64,000 nt of DNA, taken from assembly GCA_015039465.1 (NCBI GenBank), contig MU130621.1:284130-348129 (forward strand). The letters are read 5' to 3'. Both the position numbers and the translations under genes were made by a program. The stretch is from Phlegmacium glaucopus (lineage: Eukaryota > Basidiomycota > Agaricomycetes > Agaricales > Cortinariaceae). The notes below the pieces were generated by a model, which made no database searches, was not told where the DNA came from, and saw nothing but the letters and a program-made list of their open reading frames with translations. Within the stretch, counting starts at the first letter, position 1, and each line of letters opens with the position of its first letter. This document shows, in pieces, positions 1-64,000 of the stretch.

Positions 1-569
1 GTGACAATTGTAGAAGTATTCCAAATTCTCAGTATTGAGAACTTGGTCTTATACAACCTGGGCCTGGGGCCCCAAAAAAAAGGGGTTGGCATTTATTCGT
101 GCGGGTTTAGCCGGTCGGCTTCTGAACAGTCTTCGGATCTCGGACTTGGCACTGCGAAGGCAATTTTATTACCTTGCTGTAAAGCAAGGTTTCTCCGGGG
201 TCTAAACTACACATTCGTTTTGTAATGTAACGACCTCATGAAGTAACACAAATAAATACGATACGATTTCATTCATGGCTAAACCTCTTAAAACCCCCGA
301 AATGTTGAAACATTTTTTTGTACATGTTTGGTCTCCAGACCCAAAATAGTTACTACGCTTTCAAGCCCCTTCAACCCTTCGCGTACGATACAAAGCCATA
401 TGGGAAGGACCGCGGCCTGAACATTTCCTTGTGGTGGACGGAGAACAGATAGGCATGAAGTTTTCATGGCCTCTGTTTGAGAAGAGAGTGAATCCAAACT
501 TTCCATTGTTTTATCGGAATAACTGTTGACACCAATGATGTTAATTGAGGATTTCGAATACGACTGTGA
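1..569. other. no gene recognised
   Basis: Short open frames occur on both strands, but none has a recognisable motif or a coherent exon structure. The stretch could hold the 5' part of the doubtful gene that follows. Confidence 0.4.
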
Positions 570-1299
570 GTACTCGTTACTTTTTTACAAAAATACCACC
601 TTATAAACAAATACGCAGCTCAAGATAATGAAGACTGGACGAACGGGTACCCTATTTCAGATAATTACCAAACGGCGTTCGAATCCATCATCCACAAATG
701 GCGTGCAACACCATTACCAGCTTTCGACGAGGCCGGGAATTTTATCAAGGTTCGAGATCACGAATTTTCACTAAAGGGAGCGTTGGTACTGGTATATTTC
801 CAGTTGAAACACTACGCGATCAGAGACAAAAATTCAAACGGAATTGCAGGAAACACATTCACCGCCATCGCCACTCAACTAAAAATTCTCGAACGCGCAA
901 AGCGCAACACATCCCCTTACAAAAGTCAACTATTGAAGGGCCTGGTCAAGGTCACCCACAAAGCATAGGAACCAAGTAGAAGCTGTGAAGGGTTTTCATT
1001 CGGGCACAGCAGCAAAAGCAAAGGCATTCAAAGCCACTACTTCGGACGAGCCTGGAGGTAATGGCACGATGGCCACCAACATCCCGGAAGACACAGCCCA
1101 TTCGAGCCTTACAAGTTTGAATACTTCCGAGAACCTAGGAGAATCTGGCCGGCCTTCAATCTCCAAAGCAGAAGGAAAGAAAAGAGCGATAGAGGATGAC
1201 GAGGAAGCAACGGCGACCAAAGGCGAAGCAAGCTCTGTCAACTCCATCAAAAAAAAAGAAAGTCAACGAAATAAAATTGGTGAGTTAAACAGCAATTAG
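570..1299 (+). pseudogene. unrecognised gene fragment, probably frame-broken
   Basis: An open frame runs from about 570 to 968 and reads protein-like: aromatic and charged, with a segment around 745-800 translating to KVRDHEFSLKGALVLVYFQL. It stops at 966-968. A second frame, shifted by one base and open across the stop, continues to 1299 with a hydrophilic Ser/Thr/Lys/Glu-rich tail, as in nuclear or disordered proteins. No convincing intron joins the two frames, because the possible GT-AG pairs are under 35 nt. Either the gene carries a frameshift, or the tail belongs to another exon arrangement. The 5' end is not resolved, since the frame is closed by a stop at 567-569. No family was recognised. 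RNA evidence would decide whether this is a live gene. Confidence 0.3.
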
Positions 1300-2133
1300 G
1301 GCCTATATAAAACTTTTAAGCAATTATAGTCCCCAGACCAAGGTGACATGAATAATGTTATATGACTACCGACAAAATATTGAGAGGATTAAGCGCTGCG
1401 GATATGAAGAGTACATATATTCAATTGATTTTCTTTCTTAACTCTTAAATTTATTGCGAAAAGAAAAAAAAAAGATTACTCAGCAAGGTATTTTGTCGAC
1501 GAAGTCGACCGCTAGTTTTAAACTCAGCTGAAGTGCCGACATTTGTGGCTGCCAAAACTTGCAAGGTTTTTCATTCCACCAAATCTCTTGAATTTGACCG
1601 GTGTAATCTACAGAGCCCTATGAATTCAGTTAGAAAGCTTCCAGTCTACCGGAGGAGCACGAACAACCCCCATCCACCCACATCTGCATGTCCTAGATCA
1701 GTTTCAAAATAAGATATGTGGACAAGTGAGCTCCCCGTAAGATATCTGTTCAACACTTGATCTGACAGAACTCGGATCTGCCGTGCTGAAGGCAATGGCC
1801 CACTCAAACCAGTCTACATGCATAATTATCGAAACGATGTTGCATGTGTTTAACGCCAAGTTTCTGTACCCTAGAATGATCGGGAAACTTTCCAGCGGAA
1901 CAAAAGGTACAGCAATGACAAAAACTTCCAATTTTTCTTGGAGAGTCTTGTAAAGGTTGAGGTTCTCTATCTAATTCCACATTTTCAAGGGGAACGGGGA
2001 ACAATTTAGGACATTCAAGAAAGTTACTGATAGAATTTACGTACTGAAAAATTATTTGTTTGTCCAAGCCACCCTCTAGTGATCCATAAAATTTAAATTT
2101 AAATTGATAGTGACTACTATACAAATGAAATTT
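1300..2133. other. intergenic, 3' side of the polyketide synthase
   Basis: AT-rich, with poly-A runs near 1460-1475. Short minus-strand frames at 1704-2124 follow the polyketide synthase stop codon but show no domain and are taken as 3' flank. Confidence 0.4.
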
Positions 2134-5100
2134 TCAAGTTGTGTTGGATACTGCGAGCAAGTTATCGGTTTCTAAGGCCGTCACTGGGGTCAGTTCATCG
2201 GAGGGATTACTAGCAAATACGGAGAGATCGCATGTCTTCGAGTCCGGGGAACGGCATAGCCCTCCAACGAGAGCAATATATGTGTCAAGGAACTTTCTTG
2301 CCTTCTCCTCAGAGAATATATGGTTGTCGAATTGAAGAATGACACGACCAGTCTTGCCATATACATCGAGATGGAGCTCCTGAAGTTCGTCCTTGATATT
2401 CGACAGGGGGCGAAAGTTTTGCACCTGCATCCCCTCCATTCCAAGTTCCGAGATAGCGTCCAGGTTCATCCCATTGTAGGCAAACGAATGCCTAAAGTAC
2501 CTTGGGCATCCAGAAGGATCTTCAATCTCGGGGTTGATATCCTCATAAATTACGTCGCTATTTTCAAGACTCTTGGATATATCTGTCTTGAGACCAGTCA
2601 GGTACTCCTGGAATGTTTGATTGGGATCAACGGTTGTCTTGATTGGTAGGAATGTAGTGAGAGGCCCAATGACGTTGGCTAGTTGAGCTGTGTTGCGCTG
2701 TGTGACAGCGGTACCCACAACCATCGTCTCTTGAGACGAATAATGGCATAAGAGGGTGTTGTAAACGGCAAAGAATCCTTCAGATGGAGTTGCGCCAACC
2801 TCATTCATGAGGCTATGACATAGGGCCAGCGTGCTAGCATCCACAATCGCCTCGATTTGGGTGAGATCTGATAGTGGTTCCTCCGACGGTGTCAAGGACA
2901 AAAGGTATATTGGTTGAACATCTTTGAGGGTCTCGTTCCAGAATTCGCGCTGTTGCGTTTGTATCTCGGCACGGTGGTCGGAGGTTTGGAAAAGCCAGTC
3001 ACTGAAATCGGAAAAATGCATGTCTTGAGGATCGAGACTGTCGAGACCTTTGTAATACAACATGAACAATTCGTGGAATATTAAGCCAAGGGAAGCTTGG
3101 TCCATTACGCTGTGAATACTCTGTTAGACCGGAGAAATGTATGGGAAGGAACGACATACATCTGGTGGGAGATGAAACTGATGCTCCACGCATCATTGCC
3201 AAGATTGAAGACAGTCGCTCTGAAAAGGGGTAGTTTTTCAAGCTTGAGATCCAATTCTTCGCACACGTCTAATGATATCTCGTATGCCTTTCGTTCCGCA
3301 TTGGCCTCAGCCTTGAGGTCAACTACACTAATCTCGAAGTCCAGGAATGGATACACGCATTGCTCAAGCTTTCCTTGCCTGAAAAAGAAGGCAGTGCGGA
3401 GGGCGCCATGACGCTGAATGACTTCAGCGAATGCTTCGCGCATGCGAACGATATCTATATCAGTAGGAGAACTGATTGTCATCAGTAATCCATGAGTTCC
3501 GTGCTGACCAGCATTTCCTTTTAGCTTTTTATTCTGGAGCTACATTTAACCTCTTCAGAATTAATATTTAAAAGAGAGGAGATAATACAAACGTGAGAAA
3601 GCCAAATGCGTGATTGCAGACGTGATGCATTCGTTGTAAAGGTTTCACCAAATGCAATTTGTTTCACTAGGTTCGCTTGAGGAGCCGATATGTATTTGGC
3701 GTCAACGTCGTCTGGTCCTTCCAAAGCGGGGTGTCCAGCTTTTGAGCTAGCGGCGGCCATATCATCCAGGATTCCAATGTTCATAGATCCGAGAAGCTCC
3801 AGCTGGCCAACTTTGATACCAAAGTGGCCCGCCAGTTCCTTGCTGTAGCGGATAGCTTAAAGAAAGAATTGCAAGTGAGAAACGCAGCTTCCCACTGTAA
3901 GTAATCAACGAACCTCCAAGAGAATCCAATCCATAATCTTTCAAAGTAACGTCATTGGAAATTTGATCGATGCTCAAACCTAAAAGTTGTCCAAGTAAAC
4001 TTGCTGGGGTTTCAATGGTGCCGTGTTCGTTGTCTGACTGTTTAACCAAAAACCGTGTCGGGAGTAAATGGTTGTATAGGAGGGGTTCACAAGTGGAGAA
4101 CACCATAGGCACATGCTTCATAGCAATCGCTGGAACGTAATGCGAAATTTGCCGAATGATAGAGTCAGCGATGAAATCGCAGGCCTGCGCAGTAGTGACC
4201 CCAATCTTCATGGCCATTTTGGAGCTCGAACGCCCTTTCGAAGACTGGAGCAAACGTTTAAACATTCCGGAATCAGAAATCGGAGGGAGAGAAATTGAGA
4301 CCGTGTTTGGCAATGATTCAGCGATGCGATCCAGGTAGCTAAGTCGAAGAGAAATTGAGTACTTCTATCGGAAAAATAGCTGCGTATCACGTACAGTTGC
4401 GATGCACAATACGCTGATTGGCCTGCATTGCCAAAAACCGATCCAATAGTTGAGAAGAGGACGAGGAAGTCCAGCATAGCAGGATCGACAATGTTTAGAA
4501 GGGTTTCTAGTGCAATCACCTTAGAGAAGTAAACATCGTCGAAAGACTCCTGCTTCATGCCAGAGAACATTCCATCACGAGGGACAACCGTCATGAGGAA
4601 AACTCCGCCAATGGGAGCCGTATTATTTGCATGAACCATGACATCTGTCATATCCTCAGCACTGCGCGCATCTGCAGCAATAACGTCCACTGATACGTCC
4701 ATTACTTGAAGATGGCGGAGGTACACCTTGTCCATCTTGCCCAATGCCGCCGGACCACGCCTACTGGTCAAAATGATATGACGAGCACCACGAGTCGCCA
4801 TCCAAACCGAGATACGAACCCCGAGTTCACTTGAGCCGCCAACGAGAATATAACTTTTCCGTGGGTTGAATAATTGGCCAGATTTGATGTGAATAGACCT
4901 AGGGACATCGGGTGCAGCAATTAATACTTTGGATTTTGGTACGGCAGGGGGCGTTAAGCTGGATAGCTGTGAAACAGACGTAGATTGCGACTGGAGTTTG
5001 AAAGGAGTAGAGATATGGGCAGTCAATAGGTTTCCTAGACTCGATGCTATTTTGGAAGGGCAGCTCTTCACAAGCTTGGGGACGTCAATGACTCGAGTCA

Positions 5101-8100
5101 TTGGAGCACCCGAAGGGATCTCGACTTGATCGACAGTATTGGATTTGTTGTGAATGTATTGGCCCGTTGGCATCAGAAGGTCAAATATGGTCGCACTCAT
5201 CGAGCTACCTAGGAGATTGAAAACAATGTCGAAACCACACAATTTATTCTCCGACAACCAAGTTTGGAGAGCGGGGGTGGTGGCATTTACAGGCAATGAG
5301 GTGGCGATTGCTCGTTCATCCACATTGAGTTCATCGGAAAGTCGCTTTGCGTCGGCTGCTTTTGCTACGGTACAGAAGAATTTAGCGCCAAAGCGTTGAC
5401 AAAGTTGCACAGCGCCAAAGCCAACATCTGAAAATACAGTGAGCCACAGGCCAGGCGGGGTAATTAGCGATAAACAAACTTACGTGTACTTGCGTCGTGA
5501 AGAAGAACGACAGAGGAACTCGATATCGGAGCATATTCTGCAAGTGCCAACCACGGAACCAAAGCGATGACAGGCAGAGCGACAGCATCGCTGTCTGACA
5601 CATCGTTAGGAAGCACTGTAGTCGAATTCTCATCTAAAACAACAATATCCGTGATGGGATGCTTTGCGATTCCGACAACCTTGGGTAAATACAATCAGGT
5701 GCTTGAAGACAGCGTTGAAGGGTAAGAAGACTTAACGTACTTTACTCGTTGTGGAAAGACTTTTCACTTCCTCTCCGATATGAGAAACTTTCCCAATGAA
5801 AGCTACTAATGGCTTGTCCGCTGAGATGCTATCTATGCCGAAAACATCAACTGATACTTGAACATCCGTGGGTTTGGTACTTGGCGGGAAATATGCAGAG
5901 ATTTGACCTTTTTCGAAGGGAGACTCGATCGCGACACCAGGGGCGAGACTGGCCTGGGTGGCTGTAGGGTGATATACGAGTCTGCGTACAAAAATAGCTC
6001 CAGCGCGAGTGTATTTCAAGTGTTGTTCAAGAAGCGAAGGGATCTGACGAAGGGTTTCCACAATGTCTTCTCTATCCTCCAGGCTCAGCGACTTATCCTC
6101 AAATAACAGAGAGCGAACAGTGAAATTGGGTGATTCGGCGATGATGCAAGCTGCGATACCCAACGCGCCGATGCCTATAGCGTCATCATCTCCGAGAATC
6201 CAAATTTCTGAGTTTGCAACGGACTGATTGACGATTTCGACTAGCTCTGCTTCAGAGCCACGTGAGAAGTGATATATGACAACCTCGGGTACTGAATCCT
6301 CTTCCGATGGGACGACGCGAGGCGGACGGGAGCGAACTAGGATGAGAGCTTCGCCAGTAGCCAAGTTCGCGACTGAAATGTCAAGCTCAGGGATCTGCTG
6401 GAAAGCTGGGAGCGTCAGGGCTTGTTCGTCCTCAGGCTTCTCTGAGTCAGCCGAAGTTGATTCTAAATTACGCATTAACCAAATCAGACAACATTTGCTG
6501 ATCGCGAATATGAACAACTTACGATACAGCAAAACAAGAACTCCACAGGGAGCCAAATATTGAAGGAGTGTTTCAACATCTGAAGCCGAAATTGAGGCGT
6601 CGATCACTTGGAACAGGATATCGAAGCTATGATATTTGTTATTATCACCAATCAATAACGAGTATTGCATGAGTCACCTGCTAAAAATCATAGCATATTC
6701 ACCGAAATTGGGATCCAGTTCGGCTTGTCTAGCACGGGCTATGGCTCGTGCAATCGCTTCTTCGTCTTCGGGGGATACGCCAGAATTGGTCTGCGTGGAA
6801 TCCGGTCTAGCGCGGTTCATGGCTCGTGCCTTCGCTTCTGCGTCTTCAAGGGATATACCATCATTAGTATGCGTGGGGTCCAAAACGAAGGGTCTAGCGC
6901 GGGGATATGACATGGCCCGTGCCTTTTCATCTGCATCTTCGGGAGACACTCCGGTTAGGAAGTAATCTACGAGAAGCTTGTTGCTAGGTATAGCGACGAG
7001 AGATTCATTGACAGCGTTTGCAACTACCGAAGATATATCCAAATCAAGAACCCGAACAACATGCCGGCCAGCAGCCGTAGCATTGTCTATGAGGGCGTCA
7101 AAGACCTGACGAACATAGGAGGGTGTGGCAAGATCTTCAGTTGATGGGAGAGTAAGACCTGCAGAGGGAAACAATTTCGGTTGCCAAATCGTCGTAAAGC
7201 ACTCCTCCATATCGAATTGCTCCTGTGGGGCAACCGCACATTCCATTCCGTCGATAGTGAGGATAATCCGCGACTCTGAATTAGCAACGATGAGATTGGA
7301 TCTGCAAGGACCACTGGGGGTCCAAGTACTGATGGTAAGGTAGGTCCAAATGGTACCCTGCAAGTCAAAGTCAAGATCACTGTTGTCGCCTTTGTCCCAT
7401 CGAGTGATCTCATCAATCTTCACTGGTAAGAGTGTTTCAGTGAAGTCAAATGATTTAGTATCCATGTCGATGAACGCTGCCAAGGTCGAGTGCATGATGC
7501 TGTCTAGAATGCTTGGATGAATGACATAACCGTTGTCGTGTATGTTACTGTCATTTTCGGGGATTTCGAGCTTGATGAGGTATGCCAATCCACCCCAGCT
7601 GTTATCGTCAGGCAGTTCGTGGATCTGCTTAATATAACTAGAGAAATTGTCTTGGTATCCATATATCGATGGGATGGCTTGGTAAAACTCTTCCCCCGTG
7701 ATGGAGCACCGGGAGAGGGCAAGCTTCGAATCAACATCAAAGCTTATGGGCTCATCGGGATCGAATTGGGGATTATGGGTCAAGAAAGCGCCAGTGGCAT
7801 AGATCGTGTCGAGTTTGATATGTCCGTTGTCAAAAGCGAGCGACGTCGCGACTCGGAACTCCCATTCTTTGCCGTCGTTTAGGCAGCCAACATGACCAGG
7901 ATCGGTTCCGTGCGCACCGAGCATGAGCGGACGAAGGATCTTGGTGTCCTTCACAACCATAGCGCCATTCTCAAGAATGCTCTCGATATACCTGATGCAC
8001 ATTAAAATCAACGTTTCAAAATTGACGTGAACGAACTTACCCCGAGGCAGGGAATATCGGCCGATCGAATATGACATGTCCAGCCAGATCCGGATGAGTG

Positions 8101-11100
8101 TCAGAGTTCAAGCGGAACGCCGTGCTAGCTAGTGGTCTGCGTTTTTCTCGAAGACGCATCGAGCGATCGGCTGCCGATTCCGACCAGCATTTCGAGCGAT
8201 TATAAGGATACTCTGGTAATTCACATTGAATGAAATCTTGTCGTCCGTCCGAAGTAGCACAGAGCTTAGCAAGATTAATGGATTTGAAACCCGCACTCAA
8301 AAGGCTACCAATTCCCTCGAGGAATTGGTGATACTCCCCAGTGTTGTTCGCAGGTGTCTTTGGATTAGGTCGACGGACAAGACTGAAGGCTTTTCCACCA
8401 CAATGATTGATATAAGCCTGAAGGACAGGATGGGGTGAAATCTCAAGGAATACGACGCCTTCAGGCCCTCTTTCCTTTACGATATCGTCGACGGGTTTAC
8501 CGAACAACACCGGCTGACGGATGTTATCCCAGCAGTAGTCTTCATCCATTTCACGATGCAGCCAGCCTGCATCGACAGTAGACATGGTACGAACCACAGG
8601 TGTGCCCATGCCGTCCGTAAACGCAAGCTTTACCAGCGTCCTGAATTCTTGCTCGCACAAGTCCATTAAAGGTGTGTGGAAAGCGCAAGTCACCTTCAAC
8701 TTCGCTACGAAGGTCCCCCTTTCTTGAGCAAGCGAAACAAGCATGTCGATGAGCTTATTATCGCCAGCGACGGTGACATCCTGAGGTGAGTTGATGGCAG
8801 CGATCCAAAGGCCATCGTCGGCTTGTGCATCTGCCAAGACGTGTTTTATCATATACTTCGCCCTGTGGTAGCAAGCGCCGAGGGCTATCATGCTGCCGTT
8901 GCCACTGACTGTTGCCATTGCGGTCGCGCGTGCTGCAGCGATTCCTACTGCGGTCTTCTTACTGTAGTTGCCCGATGCATAGCCCATGGCAATTTCTCCG
9001 ATGCTTTTGAAAGTGGCAGATCATTATGTTATGGTCTCCGAGTTAGGGATGGATATACTCACCTATGGCCGATGGTGCAGGCGTATTCGATTCCAAGGCT
9101 CTTGATAAGGTCGACTAAAGCAAGCTGCATGAACACAATTGAATAGACGACATCTTCAATAGGCCAAACATCCTTTTCAGGAAGCTTTGCTTGCTCTCCA
9201 GGAACAAAAAGACCAGTCCGCTCCAAAAACGATTCTTTCCCGTAAGTTCCGACCAAAATCTCATCGCAGTCTTTCACAGACGATAGAAAGACGGGGTATG
9301 CCGCACAAAGCTCTCGTCCCATTGCAATGTGTTGCGGTCCCTGCCCAGAGAAAACAAGGCATAGGATGGGGTTTGCATCTGCGTTAACAACAGCTGGCTG
9401 AGAGAAGTTAAGGTCGGGTGATAGTGCAGGGCCCACTGCGAAGGAACGAGCAGGACACGAACGAGACTTGCGGGCAAGATCGTATGTCAGTGAACGCAGA
9501 ACTCGGTCGTCTGTAGTGTCTTGGTAAGATTTCGTGAGGGCATCCTTCCAGGGCAGAACGGTTGGTCCATTGAGGGCCGTGACGACGAAAAGGTATAATG
9601 GTTTATTAGAGATGGTCTGCGGGGACTCGATAATTGCTAACGTGGTGGTAGTGTTCACCGTTTCAAGGGCCTCAAGAACCACGTGCGAGTTTGATCCGCC
9701 AATTCCGGAAGAAGAAACGGAAGCAATCCATTTCCCGTCTGGAGCTGCCTGTTCTGGTGTGATTTGCTCCAACTGATTTTCAAAATATAAACCATGACAT
9801 TCAACAATAATGAAGGCGAATTACACACCTCGGTTTGAACCCTCATTAACCACTTCTTGAAGTCGATTTTCGGATTGGGGTTGTTGAAGCGGATATTCGG
9901 GATTATCTCTTTGTGCTTCAGCATGAGCGAAACTTTGATCAGACTCGCTAGAAAACTACATCCTTCAGTATGGCCAATGTTTGATTTTACACTGCCTATT
10001 CTGTAAAGATAGGTTTAGCGAGAAAACCGCTTGGTGGAGACTGATTCTCAGTATCTTACCTCAAAACTCTGTCTGACTCGCGTTCTTCTGAAAAGACCTG
10101 GCCAACAATGTTTGCTTCAATAGGATCACCAACAGGGGTGCCTGTAGCATGTAACTCGACAAAAAATGCTTCGCTTGGTTTCCTGTTGGCTTGGGCGTAT
10201 GCTTGTCTGATCGTCTCTGCTTGCATACTGGCCTTGGGCATAGTCAAACTAACTCCCTTTCCGTTGGAGTTGATCCCACTACCCGTAATGACGGAATAGA
10301 CAGTGTCACCATCTACAAGTGCTTTATCAAGTCGTTTGATCATGATTGCTCCAAATCCTTCAGCCCTTGGGATCAAGGTAAGAACTTGGAATGCGGTAGA
10401 TCGTGAACGAGAATGTATATGTACCTGGCATATCCATCTGCCGCTGCATCGAAAGATTTTGAGGAACCCGTAGGAGACAAAATTCCCGTTTTCGAAAACA
10501 TCACGTTGTGTACTGGTTGAGCTATGACATTCCCGCCTATCAAAATTAGGGAGTTAGCCACTCTATTATTCATACAACATTTAATCGCACTGCACCGATG
10601 ATTAGAGCCTGGTCAATCTCTCCAAGTTGAATAGCATTCATAGCCATGTGCATAGCTGTCGCGGAAGACGAGCAAGCTAATCATTTAATGAATTAATGTG
10701 AGGTCAAGTACTCGTTCTAACAGAATCTAAGTTCTAACTTTGATATTTTACTTACCAGTATCTACTATCAAAGAGGGCCCACGCAAGTCAAAAGTGAATG
10801 ACACCCGGTTGGATCGAAGCGAAATGCATTTTCCTAGTCCCTGGTAACTGCTAACTTCATAGCGATCGCCGTTTCCCAGCTCAGAGGCTGATATCAAAAG
10901 TTGTCCTATGTAGACACCGGTGTTAGAACCTCTGTAGTCGATTCCCGAGTCTAAAAGAGCCTATGGAGAGGGATGGGCAAGAAGACAATACGAAATAGGA
11001 CAGCACCAACCAGATGAGCGACTTCGAGAATAAGGCGCGAAGATGGATCTAGTTGTTGTGCTTCCTTCATCGATATTCCGAACTCGCGAGTGTCGAACTG

Positions 11101-11421: not shown

Positions 11422-12960
11422 CGTTTCCAATAAGTTGCAGCGCAACCGGAGCAGATGCTCTAGATTATAAAAGGCAACAGAGCTGTCGATACGGCAAGTC
11501 CTATACGCCGAGGGACTCTGGATAAGATAAACGAATCACGAGGACCACTGACCAGGTACTTGGTAACTGGTTGACAGTGAACAGCGGAAGGGTTTGAAGA
11601 AAATGAACCACCAGGTGACACTGACGTCCAGGGTTTGACGCCATACTATTATTAACATATACAGATATTCACGCCGCCTCGTTTTCTCCTGGATATGGTG
11701 AGTCAGAGACAAAAGAATCATCGAAAATAAGTTGTGCGGTTGGAGAAAAAACAACCTTTGAATTTCAATCTGGAAAACATTCTCAATTCTCTTGTATCAA
11801 CTTGTTGTATGTTATAAATGCAACAGTTTTACCTCATTACGAAGTGCTCTCTATCCCAGCCAGGCCCTTCGTTTTCAATGGGATACCCCGGTCCCCGAGT
11901 TTCCCACTGCGATAGACGCAGGGTCGTGCTGAAACTTGCGATTGCGTAATTGATGGTCAGATGGCTGTCACTGCCACCTGCTAATATTAGTACTATATTG
12001 AGTTCTTTTTGTAATCTTATTTCCCACTTAATGTCGGACTGCACCGTGATGCTACTCTAGTTGTCTTTAAGTATGTATGTAAATCTATCCGTATGAACGA
12101 GGAACGGCCTTCTGAGGAGATGCACGAGAATATAACTTGTGGGTGAGGGCCATCGCTCCGCGTGGCATATACAAGTTCCTTCAAATGAAATTATACTGGT
12201 ATTTTTATAGCGTCTTCGTGAGCGTTGAGTTTCTTAAAGAGGCCAGGGATTGACATTGTTTTCGCGCGGCAAACAAGGCCATCACCATCAACACGTGCAA
12301 TCACGGAAGTTACCGGCAAGTCTTGCGTTACCCTTTGAAAGCCGCATCCGCTTATAAGAACGAGCCCTAGGCTAAAGAGTCGTAACTTAGTTCTTAGCGC
12401 CTGATTTTCATACCACTAGCAGGCACTTAGAAATGCAGCGCCAAGTTCCGTTCAAACTACGGATAATCCAATCAGAAGCTGGTATTTGAGAGCATAAATT
12501 TACCACCGCGAGTTTCTCTGCCAAAATCTATGTTCATCAGGATTCATATAGTGCGGCTGACCGTTCACGGCGAAATGTAGGTACTAATAATAGTATACGA
12601 TTAATTATTCAAGTCTTTATTCGTTCCTGGTATCAGACACTGCCATATTTATACACCATAATGCTTTCACCCCCGATGGCTATCCATGGCAGGTAATAAC
12701 AGTCAATTATCATTGTTTATGTTTGCCCCCGGCGAGTGTAAACTTCCGGTAGTACTAAAACAAGAGAATAATTCTTGACATGAGAACAGCTATTTGAAAT
12801 CCATGCGAGTTGTTCTGCCACTTCCATAGTCACCAGACAATCCGGATCACTGCTGACACTAGAGCATAATTGCAACTTATGGATTGCTTGTTATCAGCCA
12901 ATCAGAACGCTGGAATCCAGAATGAAATGTCAGTTGCATCAATACTTAGTATGATGTACT
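11422..12960. other. intergenic region between divergent genes
   Basis: The polyketide synthase reads left and the next gene reads right, so both promoters must lie here. The AT-rich stretches give no convincing ORF. Confidence 0.5.
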
Positions 12961-30786: not shown

Positions 30787-31510
30787 AGTTGTGACAGTTA
30801 TTACACAAACCATCCACGAGAATCACATGATGTGATGCGACGTAACGTGTGACCGAGGTTCGACGAACGTCACGTGCAATTCCGTGACAACACCAAAAAT
30901 GGAAGGTACGCGGTTAATTAAGACAAAAAACGCGCGTTTTGAGTAAAAGTTTGAGAAAAACTCGCCCATAAGTTGTAGGTTAGATTGAGACACACGCAAA
31001 AATGAAAAGAATTGCGACAGTCTTATTTCCAAAACAAAATTAACTGCTCCCTCAAACACATCTGGTCCTCTATAACAGTCCTTCGGACTCCTTCCACATT
31101 TTACCTTGCACCATGGGGCATAGGATTGTTTAGAGGTACCTATATTTGAAATTTTACAGTCATGCCGGGCAGTGTGAGTATTAATCGGAAGGCATCAATT
31201 GATCAAGCAGACAAGACATCTTGTAACTTGTTTGAGAAATAAGTCGTCACACGGTTCCCAGATTTCCATGAAATTTTGAGATGATTCTAAATGACGCCTG
31301 GGCCATTTTGTCGGAAGCATATTTTCCAATCCCTTTCTTAAAGCCTCAAAAAGGGCCATCCACTGCTTTTCCGAGCCATACCTTCTATATAAGGAAGTCA
31401 CAGGATGTCACGTCAGGTGACATTAGTCGGTTATGGATGATGTGACAATCAAAGAAATTTGATTGTGGTCTATGTTAGGTACAGGCCATCTCTAGTTAGT
31501 TTTCCGTTTA
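30787..31510. other. upstream region of TDP1 and left flank of the retroelement
   Basis: Contains several gtgac/gtcac-type words (30,825-30,890) and no convincing gene. The short minus-strand frame at 31,195-31,401 has no recognisable domain. Confidence 0.4.
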
Positions 31511-31791
31511 CACATCACATGACTCGCGTCGCGCCACCCTTTCTCTGTTTGCTCGTGTAGATACCTTAGATTTACTATATGAAGTCCGTTCTCTCTCATA
31601 TCTTATCCTCAGTTGTTCTCCGTCTCCTTGACGTTAACACTGAGGTAAGATCTTTGTTCCAACTGTAATATATACTATGACTCACTTCTTGTCATTATTA
31701 CCTAGACTCAATCTTCTAGGTACATAATAATATTAGTTGTTCTCCGTCTCCTTGACGTTAACACTGAGACTCAATCTTCTAGACTCGAACA
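31511..31791 (+). mobile_element. copia LTR, 5'-truncated, forward orientation
   Basis: Corresponds over 281 bases, at constant spacing, to the LTR written in mirrored form at 32,966-33,246, which shows the complete LTR as TGTTC...GAACA (300 bp). The first 19 bases are missing here. It ends cgaaca at 31,791. Inside it, 31,611-31,644 plus 31,706-31,719 recur as one uninterrupted block at 31,735-31,782, lacking a 61-nt GT...AG segment. Confidence 0.85.
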
Positions 31792-31930
31792 GTGAATGTT
31801 GGCGATGCTTACTGCCGCACAGCTGCCTCTCACATACTGCGGTGAGAGCTGCTTCACCCCAGTATGTGAGAGGCAGCTGTGCGGCAGTAAGCATCGCCAA
31901 CATTCTCCCCTGTATGGTTCGAAACACACG
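31792..31930 (-). mobile_element. integrase fragment with near-perfect fold-back
   Basis: Directly after the LTR end, about 42 bases of integrase sequence (tgttggcgatgcttactgcc at 31,798) are followed by a 22-nt spacer and then their inverted copy. The right arm continues collinear with 37,160-37,235 until the gap. In an intact element an LTR is followed by a primer-binding site and gag, not by inverted integrase. Confidence 0.85.
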
Positions 31931-32680
31931 NNNNNNNNNNNNNNNNNNNNNNNNNNNNNNNNNNNNNNNNNNNNNNNNNNNNNNNNNNNNNNNNNNNNNN
32001 NNNNNNNNNNNNNNNNNNNNNNNNNNNNNNNNNNNNNNNNNNNNNNNNNNNNNNNNNNNNNNNNNNNNNNNNNNNNNNNNNNNNNNNNNNNNNNNNNNNN
32101 NNNNNNNNNNNNNNNNNNNNNNNNNNNNNNNNNNNNNNNNNNNNNNNNNNNNNNNNNNNNNNNNNNNNNNNNNNNNNNNNNNNNNNNNNNNNNNNNNNNN
32201 NNNNNNNNNNNNNNNNNNNNNNNNNNNNNNNNNNNNNNNNNNNNNNNNNNNNNNNNNNNNNNNNNNNNNNNNNNNNNNNNNNNNNNNNNNNNNNNNNNNN
32301 NNNNNNNNNNNNNNNNNNNNNNNNNNNNNNNNNNNNNNNNNNNNNNNNNNNNNNNNNNNNNNNNNNNNNNNNNNNNNNNNNNNNNNNNNNNNNNNNNNNN
32401 NNNNNNNNNNNNNNNNNNNNNNNNNNNNNNNNNNNNNNNNNNNNNNNNNNNNNNNNNNNNNNNNNNNNNNNNNNNNNNNNNNNNNNNNNNNNNNNNNNNN
32501 NNNNNNNNNNNNNNNNNNNNNNNNNNNNNNNNNNNNNNNNNNNNNNNNNNNNNNNNNNNNNNNNNNNNNNNNNNNNNNNNNNNNNNNNNNNNNNNNNNNN
32601 NNNNNNNNNNNNNNNNNNNNNNNNNNNNNNNNNNNNNNNNNNNNNNNNNNNNNNNNNNNNNNNNNNNNNNNNNNNNNNNN
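31931..32680. other. assembly gap, 750 N
   Basis: Exactly 750 unresolved bases. The six-frame ORFs that span it are artefacts of translating N. Confidence 0.99.
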
Positions 32681-32944
32681 AGTTCAACTAACAGGGTCAG
32701 GAGAGCAATAGACATGTCTGTTGTTACCACGGTTCACGGATAGGCAATTGCTAAGGTTAGTGCCTTTCCGGTTCGTGTAGCTGTAAGCGATGGTGAAGTA
32801 AGCGAGGGTGTAACTTAGGTTCAGAAAGCAACAGTTAGTGTAAGGGCCATGGCTTTTGTGACGGCTGTAGAAGTGGTTTGGAGAGCGAGCATAATGTAAA
32901 GTTAGAGTGCAGCGGGCGGAGCCCGAGAGTCGAGCAACTCCCCC
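32681..32944. mobile_element. mirrored RNase H tail and polypurine tract
   Basis: The plain complement read left to right encodes the end of copia RNase H: DNNGAKCLS, then KHIDIRYHFIRSHIE, then the classic NTADIFTKPLS. A purine tract gaggggg follows at 32,938-32,944, just before the LTR. This is the missing C-terminus of the pol ORF at 34,926-37,391. Confidence 0.9.
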
Positions 32945-32946
32945 GG

Positions 32947-33246
32947 ACAAGTGTAAGCGAAAATAGTGTAGTGTACTGAGCGCAGCGCGGTGGGAAAGAG
33001 ACAAACGAGCACATCTATGGAATCTAAATGATATACTTCAGGCAAGAGAGAGTATAGAATAGGAGTCAACAAGAGGCAGAGGAACTGCAATTGTGACTCC
33101 ATTCTAGAAACAAGGTTGACATTATATATGATACTGAGTGAAGAACAGTAATAATGGATCTGAGTTAGAAGATCCATGTATTATTATAATCAACAAGAGG
33201 CAGAGGAACTGCAATTGTGACTCTGAGTTAGAAGATCTGAGCTTGT
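32947..33246. mobile_element. complete copia LTR, mirrored
   Basis: In plain complement it begins tgttcacatt and ends cgaaca, so the 5-bp terminal inverted repeats TGTTC/GAACA are perfect and the LTR is 300 bp. It is followed by ggttatgggcc (33,247-33,257), which has the position and look of a primer-binding site. Confidence 0.85.
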
Positions 33247-33299
33247 CCAATACCCGGTGCGACTGTTACGTGCGTGTCGACGGAGAGTGTATGACGCCA

Positions 33300-34925
33300 C
33301 TCTCGACGAAGTGGGGTCATACACTCTCCGTCGACACGCCGTCATTCGTAGCGGTTGTAAGAGGGGACATACCAAGCTTTGTGTGCGAGGTAAAAGGGTA
33401 AAAAGGTTACGAGCATTGCACCGTGTTGCAGTGCGAGTTAGGGCATAGAGAGAGGTCTCGGACTTATTTAAGTAACGAGGGCTCAAGTGGAGGAGGTAGG
33501 TAGGAGTCGAAATAGTGAAAGAGGGGTCAGAAAGCGAGGGTCGACCGAAAGCAATACGTGGTCCGAGCCATTCGAACTAGAAAAGAGCTCTCCGTTACTT
33601 AAAAATCCCGCAGCCTCTTTAGCAGTTCCTTTGGCTATTTCATGTCAAAGGGTACTCCGTATCGTTGACCCTTCCCTGGTGTCTCTAGCGTCTTCTGTTC
33701 AAGTTCGTCAAAGCAACTGAAACTGCACCTCCTACTTCCTAAGCCTCGTGCTCTCACAAATGGCTACTACGTCCCGAGCGTGAACCTCTCGAACAGTGGT
33801 CCTCCTTTACACTGCGGAAAATGTCTCACTTCATTCAAGGAGCACCGCAGAAGTGGCTACACAGGGTATGCTACTACGGTGTCTAGGTAGCTAAGTGACT
33901 GAAACGACTTCTTTCGCCAGAGCTGTCCCACTTAAGGACCACGACCTTGTTTGAGCTGCAAGTGTTTCTTCTCGAATAAGACAACTCATGGGAGTATCTA
34001 CAGGAGGGAACTTGGCAGAAAATCAAAAGATCACTAGTGCTTGAAGGGTAGGAGCTTATATGTGGGGTGGAACGATGGCGAACGTCAGTAAGCAGGTTGG
34101 CTATTGTCCAACTGCGTGCGTAACCCTCGTACTTCTGTCAGTGCTTCGAACTGCTGGCAACAAAAGGGAGACTTTCACTTTACGCGTTCTGTTAGCGGTG
34201 AACGGTACCAAGCGTCATAAGGTACCAACCGCCATCAGTACAGAGCCCGAACTCAGTGAAGCATTCAGGTCTTTTGCAAAGCCAGAAACTCATTCACTCT
34301 ACTTCAGGGACTCAGATCCTCTAAACGCTCTAACGAAAACCTTTTCTTAGGACGTTTTAGCCGTCGCCATCCTAGTATTAGCTAACTTCGTAAGCTGTAA
34401 AGTAACTGCGTACATGAGTATTGCAGGTAACGTCAGCATCATACCGTTCCTAGTTTGTCGTGCGTTCTATCTAGTGGCTACATACACAATAGTCGTGACC
34501 TGTTTCGGAACTGTCCTAATCTCCACCTCCTTCTACGTTGCACTACTCCTCTCTACTTACCGCAGCTCCGCCGTCGGTCAAGTCCACTACGGAAACGAAA
34601 AGGAAAGCTAAAGTTGCGAACTGGGAAGGGAAGGTAAGGAGGTGGAAACCGCTTCGTTACCAGAAATAGCACGCTAAAAGGAGGCGTTAACCTCGTGTCC
34701 TGCGGGTTTCCTAAAAACAGTACGAAAACTTAACATAGTGGACGCACTAACGTCATAAGTCTAGGTCCTGGCCTGAATCACCCAGAACTTCTGAGTTAAG
34801 AGACCGTAAGCTGTTGATTAGCCGACTAATATGTTAAATCGTCCCACAGTCCTCCTCGTCCCTGATGTCGTCACCTAACCGACAGTCGCTTTAGAACTAA
34901 CTAAACGCACTCCTCGTAAACCTTT
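33300..34925. mobile_element. mirrored gag-protease-integrase coding region
   Basis: Read from 34,925 to about 33,445 on the printed strand, 3'->5' and uncomplemented, there is one frame with no stop codon. Landmarks: gag zinc knuckle CSNCGGKSHDKDHC (34,696-34,655, CX2CX4HX4C); aspartic protease LDSGTSSHLL (34,315-34,307 for DSG); NLLSVGRM; integrase zinc-binding LWHHRMGHI...CEPC (33,877-33,770); and the first acidic residue in CDLCGP followed by YFIGFLDDFSDA. Near 33,445 an extra base relative to the copy at 37,300 shifts the frame inside the integrase core. The gag start is lost, so the left end is incomplete. In both normal directions the same bases are full of stops. Confidence 0.93.
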
Positions 34926-37391
34926 AACTGGGTGAGCGATTGACGTAGCCATACGCCTTCTTGAATGGCTCGAGTGAGAGCAATGTATTCGGCCTCCGTG
35001 GTGGATAAAGCAATGCAGTTTTGCTTTTTAGCGGACCAACTAATGGGTCCGCCACCCATTGACCAAAGGAAGCCTGATACAGAGGCGTGATCCTTCTTGT
35101 CGCCAGCCCAATCTGCATCCGATAGGCCAGAGAGTGCGAGGCTGAGATTGTCTCCACCGTAGTGAAGACGATACGTCCGCGTTCCTTTGAGGTAGCGAAG
35201 GACTCGTTTGGCAGTAGCAAAATGTCGGGGTTCAGGAGAGGAGCAGTGTTGAGAGAGCAGAAGCACGGCGAAGGAAATGTCAGGACGAGAACACATCTGG
35301 AGGAACAAGAGGGAGCCGACCAAGCGCTGAAAGGATTTCGTGAGATTCGCTGTAGACGGGTACACGTCGTCAGGAGACCCAAAAGGATGATCTCGATCGA
35401 GAGGTGTTTTGACGGGGTTGCAGTTTGTGAGATCGTATTCGGCAAGGAGGGTGTCAATGAACATCTCCTGATGTATCCAGAGTTCCTTAGTTTCTAATTG
35501 ACGCTCGAATTGAACGCCAAGGAAGCAACGAAGAGGGCCGAGATCTTTAATTCCGAAGGCCTTCTTGATTTCACCTTTGATGAAGTCGAGAAAAGACATC
35601 GAAGTGCACCCTGACAGACCGTCGTCGACATGCATTGCTAGAAGGCAATGTACATCCTCTCCTCCCCATGATCGCTTGTAGACAAAGACAGCGTGATCAA
35701 ATTCGGATCGAAGGAATCCGAGAGTTTCAAGAACCTTACGGAGAAGATTGTACCAGATCAGGCTAGCCTGCTTCAAGCCGTAGAGGGATTTGAGCAGGCG
35801 CCATACGCCCTGGAGTCCAGATGGAGAGGTGTAGCCAGGAGGATAACGCATGTAGATGGTTCGAGTGAGGTCCCCCCAGAGGAAAGCGCGCGTCGCATCA
35901 AAACACTCTAGATGCCAGCCGTTGAGAGCAGCATGAACTGCAATGAAACGAATGCTCGCGGACTTCGCAACGGGAGCGAAGGTTGCGTCGTAATCGACAA
36001 AAGGTACTTGGGAGAACCCTTGCGCGACTAACCGTGCTTTGTGAATGGGTGGTCCACCATCGGGATCGAGTTTGAACTCGAATACCCATCGGTTCCCGAT
36101 GGCTCTCCTCCCCTCTGGCAAGACTTCCTCCACATACACCCCCATGGACTTCAACATCCCCAACTCTTTCTCTTCCACTTTCCTCCAATCCTCTGCGTCT
36201 GATCGTGCCATAGCTTCACGGTGATTTGCAGGAGGAGTTGACATGTCGTACCCGGGATTGTGGGGGTTACGAGGAATATCACTACGCAAGGAAAGGAGTG
36301 CGAGCTCGAAACTCGCATCCATGTCACGCTGAAGATAGTTCTGAACATCGAGTGACGCTGCGAGGGATGTGAAGTCGTCGGTTTCTTCAAACAAGTCGGG
36401 CAATTCACAGCAGAGGTAGGAATAGTCCGCTGCTTCAGCGTGATCATCCATTGCCAGTGTATCGTTCTTCTCAGCTATCATAGACGCTCTCTCCATCGCA
36501 AGTCGCTCCACTGCAGCCCTCCTCTCCTCACGCTTCTCCTTATTGATCCTGATTCTCTCCAGATGCTCTTTTGCTGATCGGATGGAATCAGCGTAATCTC
36601 GTCCCCTGGTGGTGAGCAAACGATTGCTGCGAAGGGTGAGAGCAGACTTAGTCGAGTGTTCGGTCGTGATGGGAGGATGTTGCGAGGTGATGTTGGGTGC
36701 GAGAACATCGGGCGAAGATACATCGTTGCTGGGAGGTGTAGATGAAGGGGAAGATTCCGATGGAAGTGTTTCCGGGGATGAAGAAGGTGCAAGAATGGAG
36801 GGAGGGAACGGCAGTGAGGAGTAGTCGACAGGAGTAGAAGAGACCTCATGAATTGCATGGTATGGGATGTTTTCGTCAAAAATAACAGATCCCGAGTCGA
36901 AGAATAAATGTGTCGCGAGTGAGCGCACGCGATATCCTCTACCTGACGGTGGATACCCCATGAAAAGACATTCCACAGACTTTACTCCCAACTTGGATTG
37001 TAATTCGACAGGAACATGTGCGAAGCATCGAACACCCCAGACTCGCAAGTGGGAGACATCAGGCTTATGATTTTGAAAGACTTCAAATGGGGTTGTGTTT
37101 TTCGGAAGTGAGGAAGTGATTGTGAGATTATAGAGATACGCTGCGGTGAGAGCTGCTTCACCCCAGTATGTGAGAGGCAGCTGTGCGGCAGTAAGCATCG
37201 CCAACATTCTCCCCTGTATGGTTCGAAACACACGCTCCATTTTCCCATTTTTCCAATGCTCGTAACGTGGCACAACGTCACGCTCAATCCCGTCTTTCTC
37301 CAGAGCCTGAATGAATTCGTTGCTCCCGAGTTCACCTCCTCCATCCATCCTCAGCTTTATCACTTTCTCCCCAGTCTTTCGCTCCCAGCTG
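34926..37391 (-). CDS. copia pol: integrase C-half, reverse transcriptase, RNase H
   Basis: A long uninterrupted frame. It opens inside the integrase core (WERKTGEKVIKLRMDGGGE, carrying the second catalytic Asp) and continues with KMERVFRTIQGRMLAM and the WGEAALTAAYLYN region, then a Pro/Ser-rich linker. The reverse transcriptase follows: FAPVAKSASIRFIA, DATRAFLWGDL, GLKQASLIWY, and the catalytic pair in MHVDDGL. RNase H comes last (DADWAGD, STTEAEY). The annotated frame stops after a false tail (YEECV) because it runs into the mirrored block at 34,925. With that block reversed it continues to the normal RNase H end. The frame is intact, which suggests recent activity. The N-terminal residues of the printed ORF (37,392-37,504) belong to a different fragment read out of frame. 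Confidence 0.93.
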
Positions 37392-37511
37392 GAGAGGACT
37401 GGGACAATCAACTTGAAACTGGGTGAGCGATTGACGTAGCCATACGCCTTCTTGAATGGCTCGAGTGAGAGCAATGTATTCGGCCTCCGTGGTGGATAAA
37501 GCAATGCAGTT
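37392..37511 (-). mobile_element. second RNase H fragment fused to the integrase
   Basis: Bases 37,417-37,511 repeat 34,926-35,020 with no difference seen by eye over 95 bp. The next 25 bases continue RNase H (QVDCPSPL) and then jump into the integrase at cctctc. It is out of frame with the integrase and ends abruptly at host sequence after 37,511, with no LTR. Confidence 0.85.
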
Positions 37512-62940: not shown

Positions 62941-63780
62941 TGGAACCCCCAACTTTCGTCTTATTTCTTTATATTGAGGATTCTTTACAACTCTTATATA
63001 TCATCTCATATAAAACAGTGATACTATCCGACTTCTTGGGTCAAAGACTTCTCAAGATATCCGACCTTCAGAATTTTTAACTTTAAATCGTCCCTAAACC
63101 CACCCCAAACGAATTAACATACTAAGATTCACACTTTATTTTATTATTTTGAGGACTCCTTATAAAAATTGTGTGGTATCTGTTAAAAACCGTGTCCTTA
63201 TCGATGTTTTCAAATCAAATACTTGTCAAGATATCCAACCTTCAAAGTTTAAACCTAACCTTAACGGTGATCGAGTGAGTAAAAATTCCCGAACTCACAC
63301 TTTATTTTTTTATATTGAGGACTCTCTACAAGTATTATGTATCATATCATACAATACAGTCATTATACTCAATGTATTTGATCAAAATCTTCACAAGATA
63401 TCCGGTCTTCAATGGTTATAACGTAAAATCGTCCTTAAACACACCTTTGACGAGTAAATATTCACAGACCCACACTTTATTTTGTTATATTGACGACTCT
63501 TTATAAATTTTATATATAATCTAGTAAAGTGTCGTGGTTCTGTTCAATGTATTTGGGTAAAGACTTCACAAGATAACCGACCTTCAAAGTTTTTACCGTA
63601 AAACCGTCCCTGAACCCATCTTTAACGAGTAAACATCCCAGGACACACATGTTATTTTATTTTATTGACGACTCTTTATAAATGTTATGTACCATCTCTT
63701 AAAATGTAGTGGTTTTATACAACGCCTTTAGTTATTAACTTCACAATATGACGAATCTTCAAAATCAGGTGGTCTGTTTT
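62940..63780. repeat. tandem repeat, period about 175 bp, nearly five units
   Basis: The landmark ttttatattgaggactcttta recurs with gagga/gacga centred at 62,976, 63,151, 63,317, 63,492 and 63,667, so spacings are 175, 166, 175 and 175. Each unit also carries a tcaagatatccgaccttcaa block and an aaatcgtcc block. Units differ by about 10-25% by eye. AT-rich; open frames across it are accidental. Confidence 0.92.
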
Positions 63781-64000
63781 TTTCGTATCGGTGGGGTTTT
63801 TTGGTGTGTTAGTGGTAAAGATAGTATTTTTAAGTAAGTTATATACAAGTGTACTACGATATTATGTAAATACTATGGTTTTTTTAGTAGGTTTTACTAC
63901 GTCTTGACTCACTCATTCGCACAAAGTGTGAAACAGTGCGTAAACCGTTACACTGCACTGTATTGTGACGGTTTAGGTATTGTCCGTAACGGGTGGTGGT
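63781..64000. other. sequence beyond the tandem repeat
   Basis: Unrelated to the repeat. It contains gttaccactgcac/gtgtaac-like short inverted words (accgttacac...gtgacggt, 63,946-63,973). No gene. Confidence 0.4.

What the first reader, a model, noticed from the sequence alone, without database searches (positions are those of the whole stretch)
32681..34925. A 2.2 kb block is written backwards: reversed but not complemented
Seen directly: 32,966-33,246 is the base-by-base complement of 31,511-31,791 in the same direction, 281 nt at a fixed offset of 1,455. Normal duplicates are identical or reverse-complementary; parallel complements do not arise from any known polymerase or recombination. 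Read 3'->5' uncomplemented, the block encodes an open copia gag (CSNCGGKSHDKDHC), protease (LDSGTSS) and integrase (WHHRMGHI...CEPC) frame of about 490 codons. Reversing it in place restores the RNase H frame exactly at 34,926. The most likely cause is a gap-filling or scaffolding bug next to the 750-N gap. If real, it would be unprecedented.
Basis: partly seen in the sequence, partly recalled or inferred. Interest (0 to 1): 0.93.

Follow-up and report, generated by a model that had tools for sequence, protein, structure and literature searches.

The report
Backwards gap-fill error in fungal assembly

Summary
32,681-34,925 is printed reversed without complementing: 32,966-33,247 is an exact 282-nt parallel complement of 31,511-31,792. 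Reversed, all 2,245 nt align at 99.07% to C9:463462-465703 of the same assembly, contiguous there with what starts at 34,926. As printed, the block matches only itself, plus a short self-mirror, in 60.5 Mb.

It is an assembly artefact. It is flush with a 750-N gap. Both neighbouring contig edges lie 95 nt into exact repeats, as expected of a 96-mer graph assembler. The fault recurs: C147:50080-50703, flush with N, is the exact reverse of C50:14872-15495 (624 of 624). C181:534064-536264, ending at N, fits the natural repeat only when reversed (578 of 600 positions tested, against 148 as printed). Backwards copies of that second repeat occur at 39 other scored places.

Most likely a gap filler that extends contigs into gaps wrote its extensions reversed. 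ALLPATHS-LG plus PBJelly is a candidate, not shown. No raw reads were available.

The parts
32681..34925 (.). Block printed in plain reverse (not complemented): partial copia element (gag, protease, start of integrase, then an inverted LTR and the element's 3' end)
   Evidence: Reversed it aligns 99.07% over 1-2245 to C9:463462-465703; printed it matches only itself and a short self-mirror in the assembly; per-base 5-mer log-odds -0.0286 against mean +0.0170, SD 0.0075, in 61 outside 1-kb chunks
31931..32680 (.). Run of 750 N (remaining assembly gap), flush with the reversed block
32966..33247 (.). Exact parallel complement (282 nt) of 31511-31792, part of the reversed block
31511..31792 (+). 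LTR sequence in natural form near the end of the left contig
   Evidence: matches C9 copies at 99.65-100%
31836..31930 (+). Last 95 nt before the gap: exact match to the copia copy at L023 7379-7473 that ends exactly at the gap
   Evidence: 95 nt against L023/L002, 94 nt against 37141-37234 of the window, 420 nt against L024
34926..35020 (+). First 95 nt right of the block: exact repeat of 37417-37511; taken as the original contig start
   Evidence: 95 nt against the window's own copy, 162 nt against the C9 copies
34655..34696 (.). gag zinc-knuckle motif CSNCGGKSHDKDHC, readable only in plain reverse
   Evidence: reversed frame +1, residue index 76; printed coordinates worked out by hand; motif name from the finding
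34298..34318 (.). protease motif LDSGTSS, readable only in plain reverse
   Evidence: residue index 202; coordinates by hand
33770..33880 (.). integrase motifs WHHRMGHI ... CEPC, readable only in plain reverse
   Evidence: residue indices 348 and 381; coordinates by hand
34926..37392 (-). Correctly printed copia integrase-RT-RNase H region of the right contig
   Evidence: 99.68% to L023 5165-7631; Pfam RVT_2 E 7.9e-55

Best explanation
An assembly artefact. A short-read assembly with 96-mers broke inside a copia retrotransposon, leaving a gap between contigs that ended at 31,930 and began at 34,926. A later gap-filling step extended the right contig 2,245 nt leftwards into the gap, did not close it, left 750 N, and wrote the extension reversed without complementing it. 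The same step did this at many other gaps. Shown: the plain reversal, its flush fit with the gap, exact continuity at 34,926 after reversal, 95-nt exact repeats at the contig edges, and recurrence beside other N runs. Inferred: that the edges are those of a 96-mer graph, and that the program was a flank-extending long-read gap filler such as PBJelly on an ALLPATHS-LG assembly.
For: Plain reversal: 282-nt exact parallel complement; reversed block 99.07% over its full length to C9 and contiguous there with 34926; printed block has 2 matches in the assembly, itself and a self-mirror, whereas the natural counterpart has 55, itself included. Direction test trained on the window: block -0.0286 per base against +0.0170, SD 0.0075. 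Contig-edge marks: an exact 95-nt match to one partner at each of three edges, 34926, 31930 and L026 1705. Second case: L026 1081-1704, flush against N, is the exact reverse of L027 873-1496, 624 of 624, and L026 1705 onward equals L027 1497 onward for 1,049 nt. Third case: L028 6065-8265 ends at N; read back from the N its first 600 nt match the natural continuation of an LTR repeat at 578 of 600, in printed order 148 of 600. Backwards copies of that LTR: the 40 candidates scored out of 664 all matched, that is the query's own place and 39 others, some within 2 kb of each other. Of 20 such loci fetched (own place included), 13 hold N in the fetched flanks and in 11 of these 13 the backwards segment lies within 50 nt of the N run; 0 of 14 other loci hold N. 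PBJelly is described as splicing in flank extensions where it cannot close a gap and leaving N (passages, PMC3504050); ALLPATHS-LG followed by PBJelly is described for JGI hybrid fungal assemblies (passage, PMC7550596).
Against: 7 of the 20 backwards-LTR loci hold no N in the fetched flanks, and in L038 and L041 the backwards segment has normal sequence on both sides, so a merely 'reduced' gap cannot be the whole story; closed gaps may be affected too. Some gap edges look normal: window 31930, L027, L030, L015. The 95-nt marks are not seen with every partner: other partners share 94, 420, 162, 63, 73 or 1,049 nt at these edges. The direction test is weak for the second case (L026, -9.4), which rests on the exact match and the N run. 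No paper reporting this bug was found. Species and assembly report were not identified. That 96 is the usual K of ALLPATHS-LG is recalled (one search found nothing).
Confidence: 0.97

Rival explanations
1. The deposited assembly is right and the reversal arose later, in the conversion or local copy of the sequence held for this scan.
Against: Three backwards blocks respect contig edges and N runs to the base; a later file conversion would not know old contig edges inside a scaffold.
Confidence: 0.02
2. The cell really holds parallel-complement DNA, made by an unknown 3'-to-5' or systematically exchanging polymerisation, as claimed for RNA in the 'swinger' and 'invertase' literature.
For: The letters are there and dozens of backwards places exist. 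A literature claims such polymerisation (search listing; passages and a reference title in PMC7027195). Backwards segments without N in reach (L038, L041) are not yet explained in detail.
Against: The three blocks examined to the base start at contig edges and run to N; no cell process knows where an assembler broke. For the copia family the backwards form was found once only: the printed block matched only itself and a reversed RT query matched nothing, against 55 and 17 matches for natural forms.
Confidence: 0.005
3. A chance or low-complexity mirror repeat.
For: The block holds a 69-nt hairpin that gives short self-mirror matches.
Against: 282-, 153-, 115- and 73-nt exact matches, and 99.07% over 2,245 nt after reversal.
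Confidence: 0

Closest known systems
Flank extension of unclosed gaps by PBJelly-type long-read gap filling
   Same: New sequence spliced between a contig edge and a remaining run of N, the gap reduced and not closed (passages, PMC3504050)
   Different: Proper output would be in the right orientation; here it is reversed without complement. No report of that fault was found
Ty1/copia LTR retrotransposon (content of the block)
   Same: gag, protease and integrase motifs, RVT_2 reverse transcriptase next door, LTR; other copies on C9, C50, C147, C181, C210
   Different: Printed backwards, so the printed block found no relative in the assembly
'Swinger' and 3'-to-5' 'invertase' claims (Seligmann and co-workers)
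   Same: Letters related by reversal or by systematic exchange (passages, PMC7027195)
   Different: Here tied to contig edges and N runs; a software cause suffices

Membership tests
Assembly artefact: plain-reversed gap-fill extension | Block matches other sequence only after reversal without complement | tested here: met
Assembly artefact: plain-reversed gap-fill extension | One end flush with an N run, the other at an original contig edge | tested here: met
   N 31931-32680; 95-nt exact repeats at 31930, 34926 and L026 1705 with one partner each; that these are original contig edges is inferred
Assembly artefact: plain-reversed gap-fill extension | After reversal the block is contiguous with its neighbour as in another copy | tested here: met
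   C9 L024 5462|5461 and L023 5164|5165; C147 against C50, 624 of 624
Assembly artefact: plain-reversed gap-fill extension | Recurs at other gaps of the same assembly | tested here: met
   but 7 of 20 loci hold no N in the fetched flanks
Assembly artefact: plain-reversed gap-fill extension | Raw reads lack the printed junction | not testable with these tools
   no reads held
Output of ALLPATHS-LG followed by PBJelly | Documented use of these programs for this assembly | not tested
   organism and assembly report not identified; only general descriptions seen
Ty1/copia element (content) | RVT_2 reverse transcriptase | tested here: met
   window 34904-37504 minus, RVT_2 E 7.9e-55
Ty1/copia element (content) | gag, protease and integrase upstream of RT in one orientation | tested here: met
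   Order seen in the C9 copy L023 by alignment; motifs in the reversed block; in the C9 counterpart gag_pre-integrs E 1.5e-11 and Pol_BBD E 1.8e-11, above cut-off; rve E 3.2e-5, 24.6 bits, below its cut-off of 32.6. Protease rests on a motif word only; a single polyprotein frame was not tested
Real parallel-complement (3'-to-5' polymerised) DNA | Junctions independent of assembly structure | tested here: not met
   In the three blocks examined to the base the junctions lie at contig edges and N runs

The most novel reading that the evidence does not exclude
Some of the backwards blocks are real DNA made by an unknown reversing polymerisation, and assembly gaps lie beside them because such DNA breaks assemblers.
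Probability: 0.005. Interest if true: 0.97.

Novelty: not a real feature. Interest (0 to 1): 0.12.

Why it matters
As biology it does not. As a quality warning it does: the file holds false sequence that a normal homology search does not recognise, at dozens of places at least. Such blocks could yield false repeat families, false unique sequence, broken gene models and false 'mirror DNA' claims. A simple screen (search each gap flank after plain reversal, or a k-mer direction test) could find them in this and other assemblies.

Tried and rejected
Rejected: chance, low complexity and ordinary inverted duplication. Rejected as sole cause: a one-off slip, since the fault recurs.

Paper searches for a report of this bug: 1 unrelated paper; 2 papers, listing only; 11 papers, 10 listed; passages of one, PMC6733440, nothing on this; 0; 2 unrelated. 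One search found no paper tying ALLPATHS to 96-mers. A reversed copia RT query (window 35553-36500 reversed) found no backwards copy; it has no positive control of its own.

Weak points of the tests. The segmentation was trained on sequence that includes natural copia copies and a natural copy of the second LTR, so it is not free of homology; it also marked low-scoring segments in L056, L058, L062, L063, L066 (-10 to -14), L028 103-595 (-9.1) and window 63413-64000 (-13.8, a tandem repeat), so I lean only on scores below about -20; the 20 loci L033-L052 all pass that (-22 to -69), L026 does not (-9.4). A window-only test in 500-nt pieces gave mixed signs in these loci. The 14 comparison loci (L054-L060, L062-L068) are not random: they came from other queries; L053 and L061 were left out as the queries' own places; L060 is itself called backwards (-47.7) with no N in reach. 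L029 was noted as flush with its gap; its backwards segment (233-1599) ends about 400 nt short of the N run, so it is not used as a base-exact case.

Full report
What was claimed and what is there. That is correct. The two 281-nt stretches agree as parallel complements at 281 of 281 positions, and the maximal exact run is 282 nt. A scan of the whole window against its own parallel complement gave 12 exact runs of 18 nt or more, that is 6 pairs each listed twice, and every pair has one side inside the block.

The block read in reverse. Reversed but not complemented, the block aligns over its full 2,245 nt at 99.07% to C9:463462-465703 of the same assembly, minus strand. There are 14 mismatches and 4 gaps: 6 mismatches and 3 gaps lie in a hairpin junction near reversed positions 1654-1678; the other 8 mismatches are transitions and the fourth gap is a 2-nt insertion. 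As printed, the block has two matches in the 60.5 Mb assembly, itself and a short self-mirror, while its natural counterpart in C9 has 55, itself included. Up to residue 491 the frame agrees with the C9 copy but for two residues; the 2-nt insertion then shifts it. The C9 counterpart has Pfam gag_pre-integrs and Pol_BBD above cut-off and a sub-threshold integrase core; the correctly printed right flank has RVT_2. So the content is an ordinary Ty1/copia element.

Where the block ends. Its left end is the base after the 750-N run. Its right end is fixed to the base: the reversed block runs into 34,926 exactly as C9 does, and 6 of 6 fetched stretches with this part of the element (L023-L028) are contiguous at the same point, the last base of the block being outside the local alignment in four. 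A 5-mer direction test gives -0.0286 per base for the block against a mean of +0.0170 (SD 0.0075, lowest -0.0081) in 61 one-kilobase chunks outside. A segmentation places the change at 34,926, but its training data held natural copia copies.

Assembler fingerprints. The right contig begins with 95 nt that recur exactly at 37417-37511 and then diverge. The left contig ends 95 nt into an exact match with the copia copy L023 on C9. An edge of a 96-mer graph begins and ends with 95 shared bases, so 31,930 and 34,926 look like original contig ends. Against this, other partners share other lengths at the same points: 162 nt at 34,926, 94 or 420 nt at 31,930. That 96 is the usual K of ALLPATHS-LG is recalled. 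The block lies wholly between these two ends, in what was the gap.

The fault recurs. Comparing the fetched loci with each other after plain reversal brought up further cases. In C147, the 624 nt right of an N run (L026 1081-1704) are the exact reverse, 624 of 624, of C50:14872-15495; the next base, L026 1705, continues as C50 does for 1,049 identical nt, and 1705 again starts a 95-nt exact match, to L056, while L058 and L059 share 63 and 73 nt there. In C181, natural sequence of a second LTR repeat stops at about L028 6064; 6065-8265 then runs to an N run, and only when read back from that N does it continue the LTR (578 of the 600 positions tested, against 148 of 600 as printed). A search with the printed, backwards stretch gave 58 matches from 40 scored candidates out of 664: the query's own place, 39 others with backwards LTR, and short extra pieces, 12 of them to the natural first 64 nt of the query (recounted from the list). 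The natural form gave 61 matches from 40 scored of 841. These are lower bounds. Of the 20 backwards-LTR loci fetched, own place included, 13 hold N in the fetched flanks, against 0 of 14 other, non-random loci; in 11 of the 13 the backwards segment lies within 50 nt of the N run, in L037 185 nt and in L050 557 nt away. All 20 contain a segment called backwards.

Results that do not fit neatly. Seven of those 20 loci show no N in the fetched flanks, and L038 and L041 have normal sequence on both sides of the backwards segment. Either closed gaps were also filled backwards, or something else is at work there. Some gap edges look normal: the window's left edge, L027, L030 and L015. So not every gap was extended, or not every extension was reversed. 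The direction test is weak for the C147 case (-9.4) and has unclear calls at low scores elsewhere.

Mechanism. The simplest account is a gap filler that extends contigs into gaps, leaves N where it cannot close them, and here wrote the extensions reversed without complementing. PBJelly is described as doing the first two things (passages of PMC3504050), and ALLPATHS-LG followed by PBJelly is described for JGI hybrid fungal assemblies (passage of PMC7550596). That this assembly came from that pipeline is inferred.

Biological rival. A literature claims systematic nucleotide exchange and 3'-to-5' polymerisation (search listing; passages and a reference title in PMC7027195). Nothing in the three blocks examined to the base needs it: no cell process knows where an assembler broke its contigs. 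I put it at 0.005.

Verdict. Its use is as a warning about this assembly and as a screen for others.

Noticed in passing
C147:50080-50703 (L026 1081-1704): Second plain-reversed block, flush with an N run, exact reverse of C50:14872-15495.
   Followed up: yes
C181:534064-536264 (L028 6065-8265) and 39 other scored places: An abundant LTR repeat occurs both in natural form and printed backwards across the assembly.
   Followed up: partly
L029 629-889 (C147:46628-46888) and window 12133-12386: A stretch some way left of an N run matches the window at 88% after plain reversal.
   Followed up: partly
L060 (C147:65707-65929 and flanks): Called backwards at 50-3013 (-47.7) with no N in reach; found by the printed backwards part of L026.
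   Followed up: no
window 31507-31930 and C9:463742-464166: An LTR followed by a 70-nt inverted piece of integrase (hairpin) is shared at 99.8-100% by the window's left contig and C9; the reversed block has a variant of the same junction that differs over about 25 nt. Real rearranged element or shared assembly error.
   Followed up: no
window 62961-64000: Diverged tandem repeat, offset 175 nt, in which the direction test is weakly negative (-13.8); unclear.
   Followed up: no
window 37392-37511: A 120-nt piece of the element's 3' region follows directly after the integrase region, a jump back within the element; real breakpoint or graph leftover.
   Followed up: no
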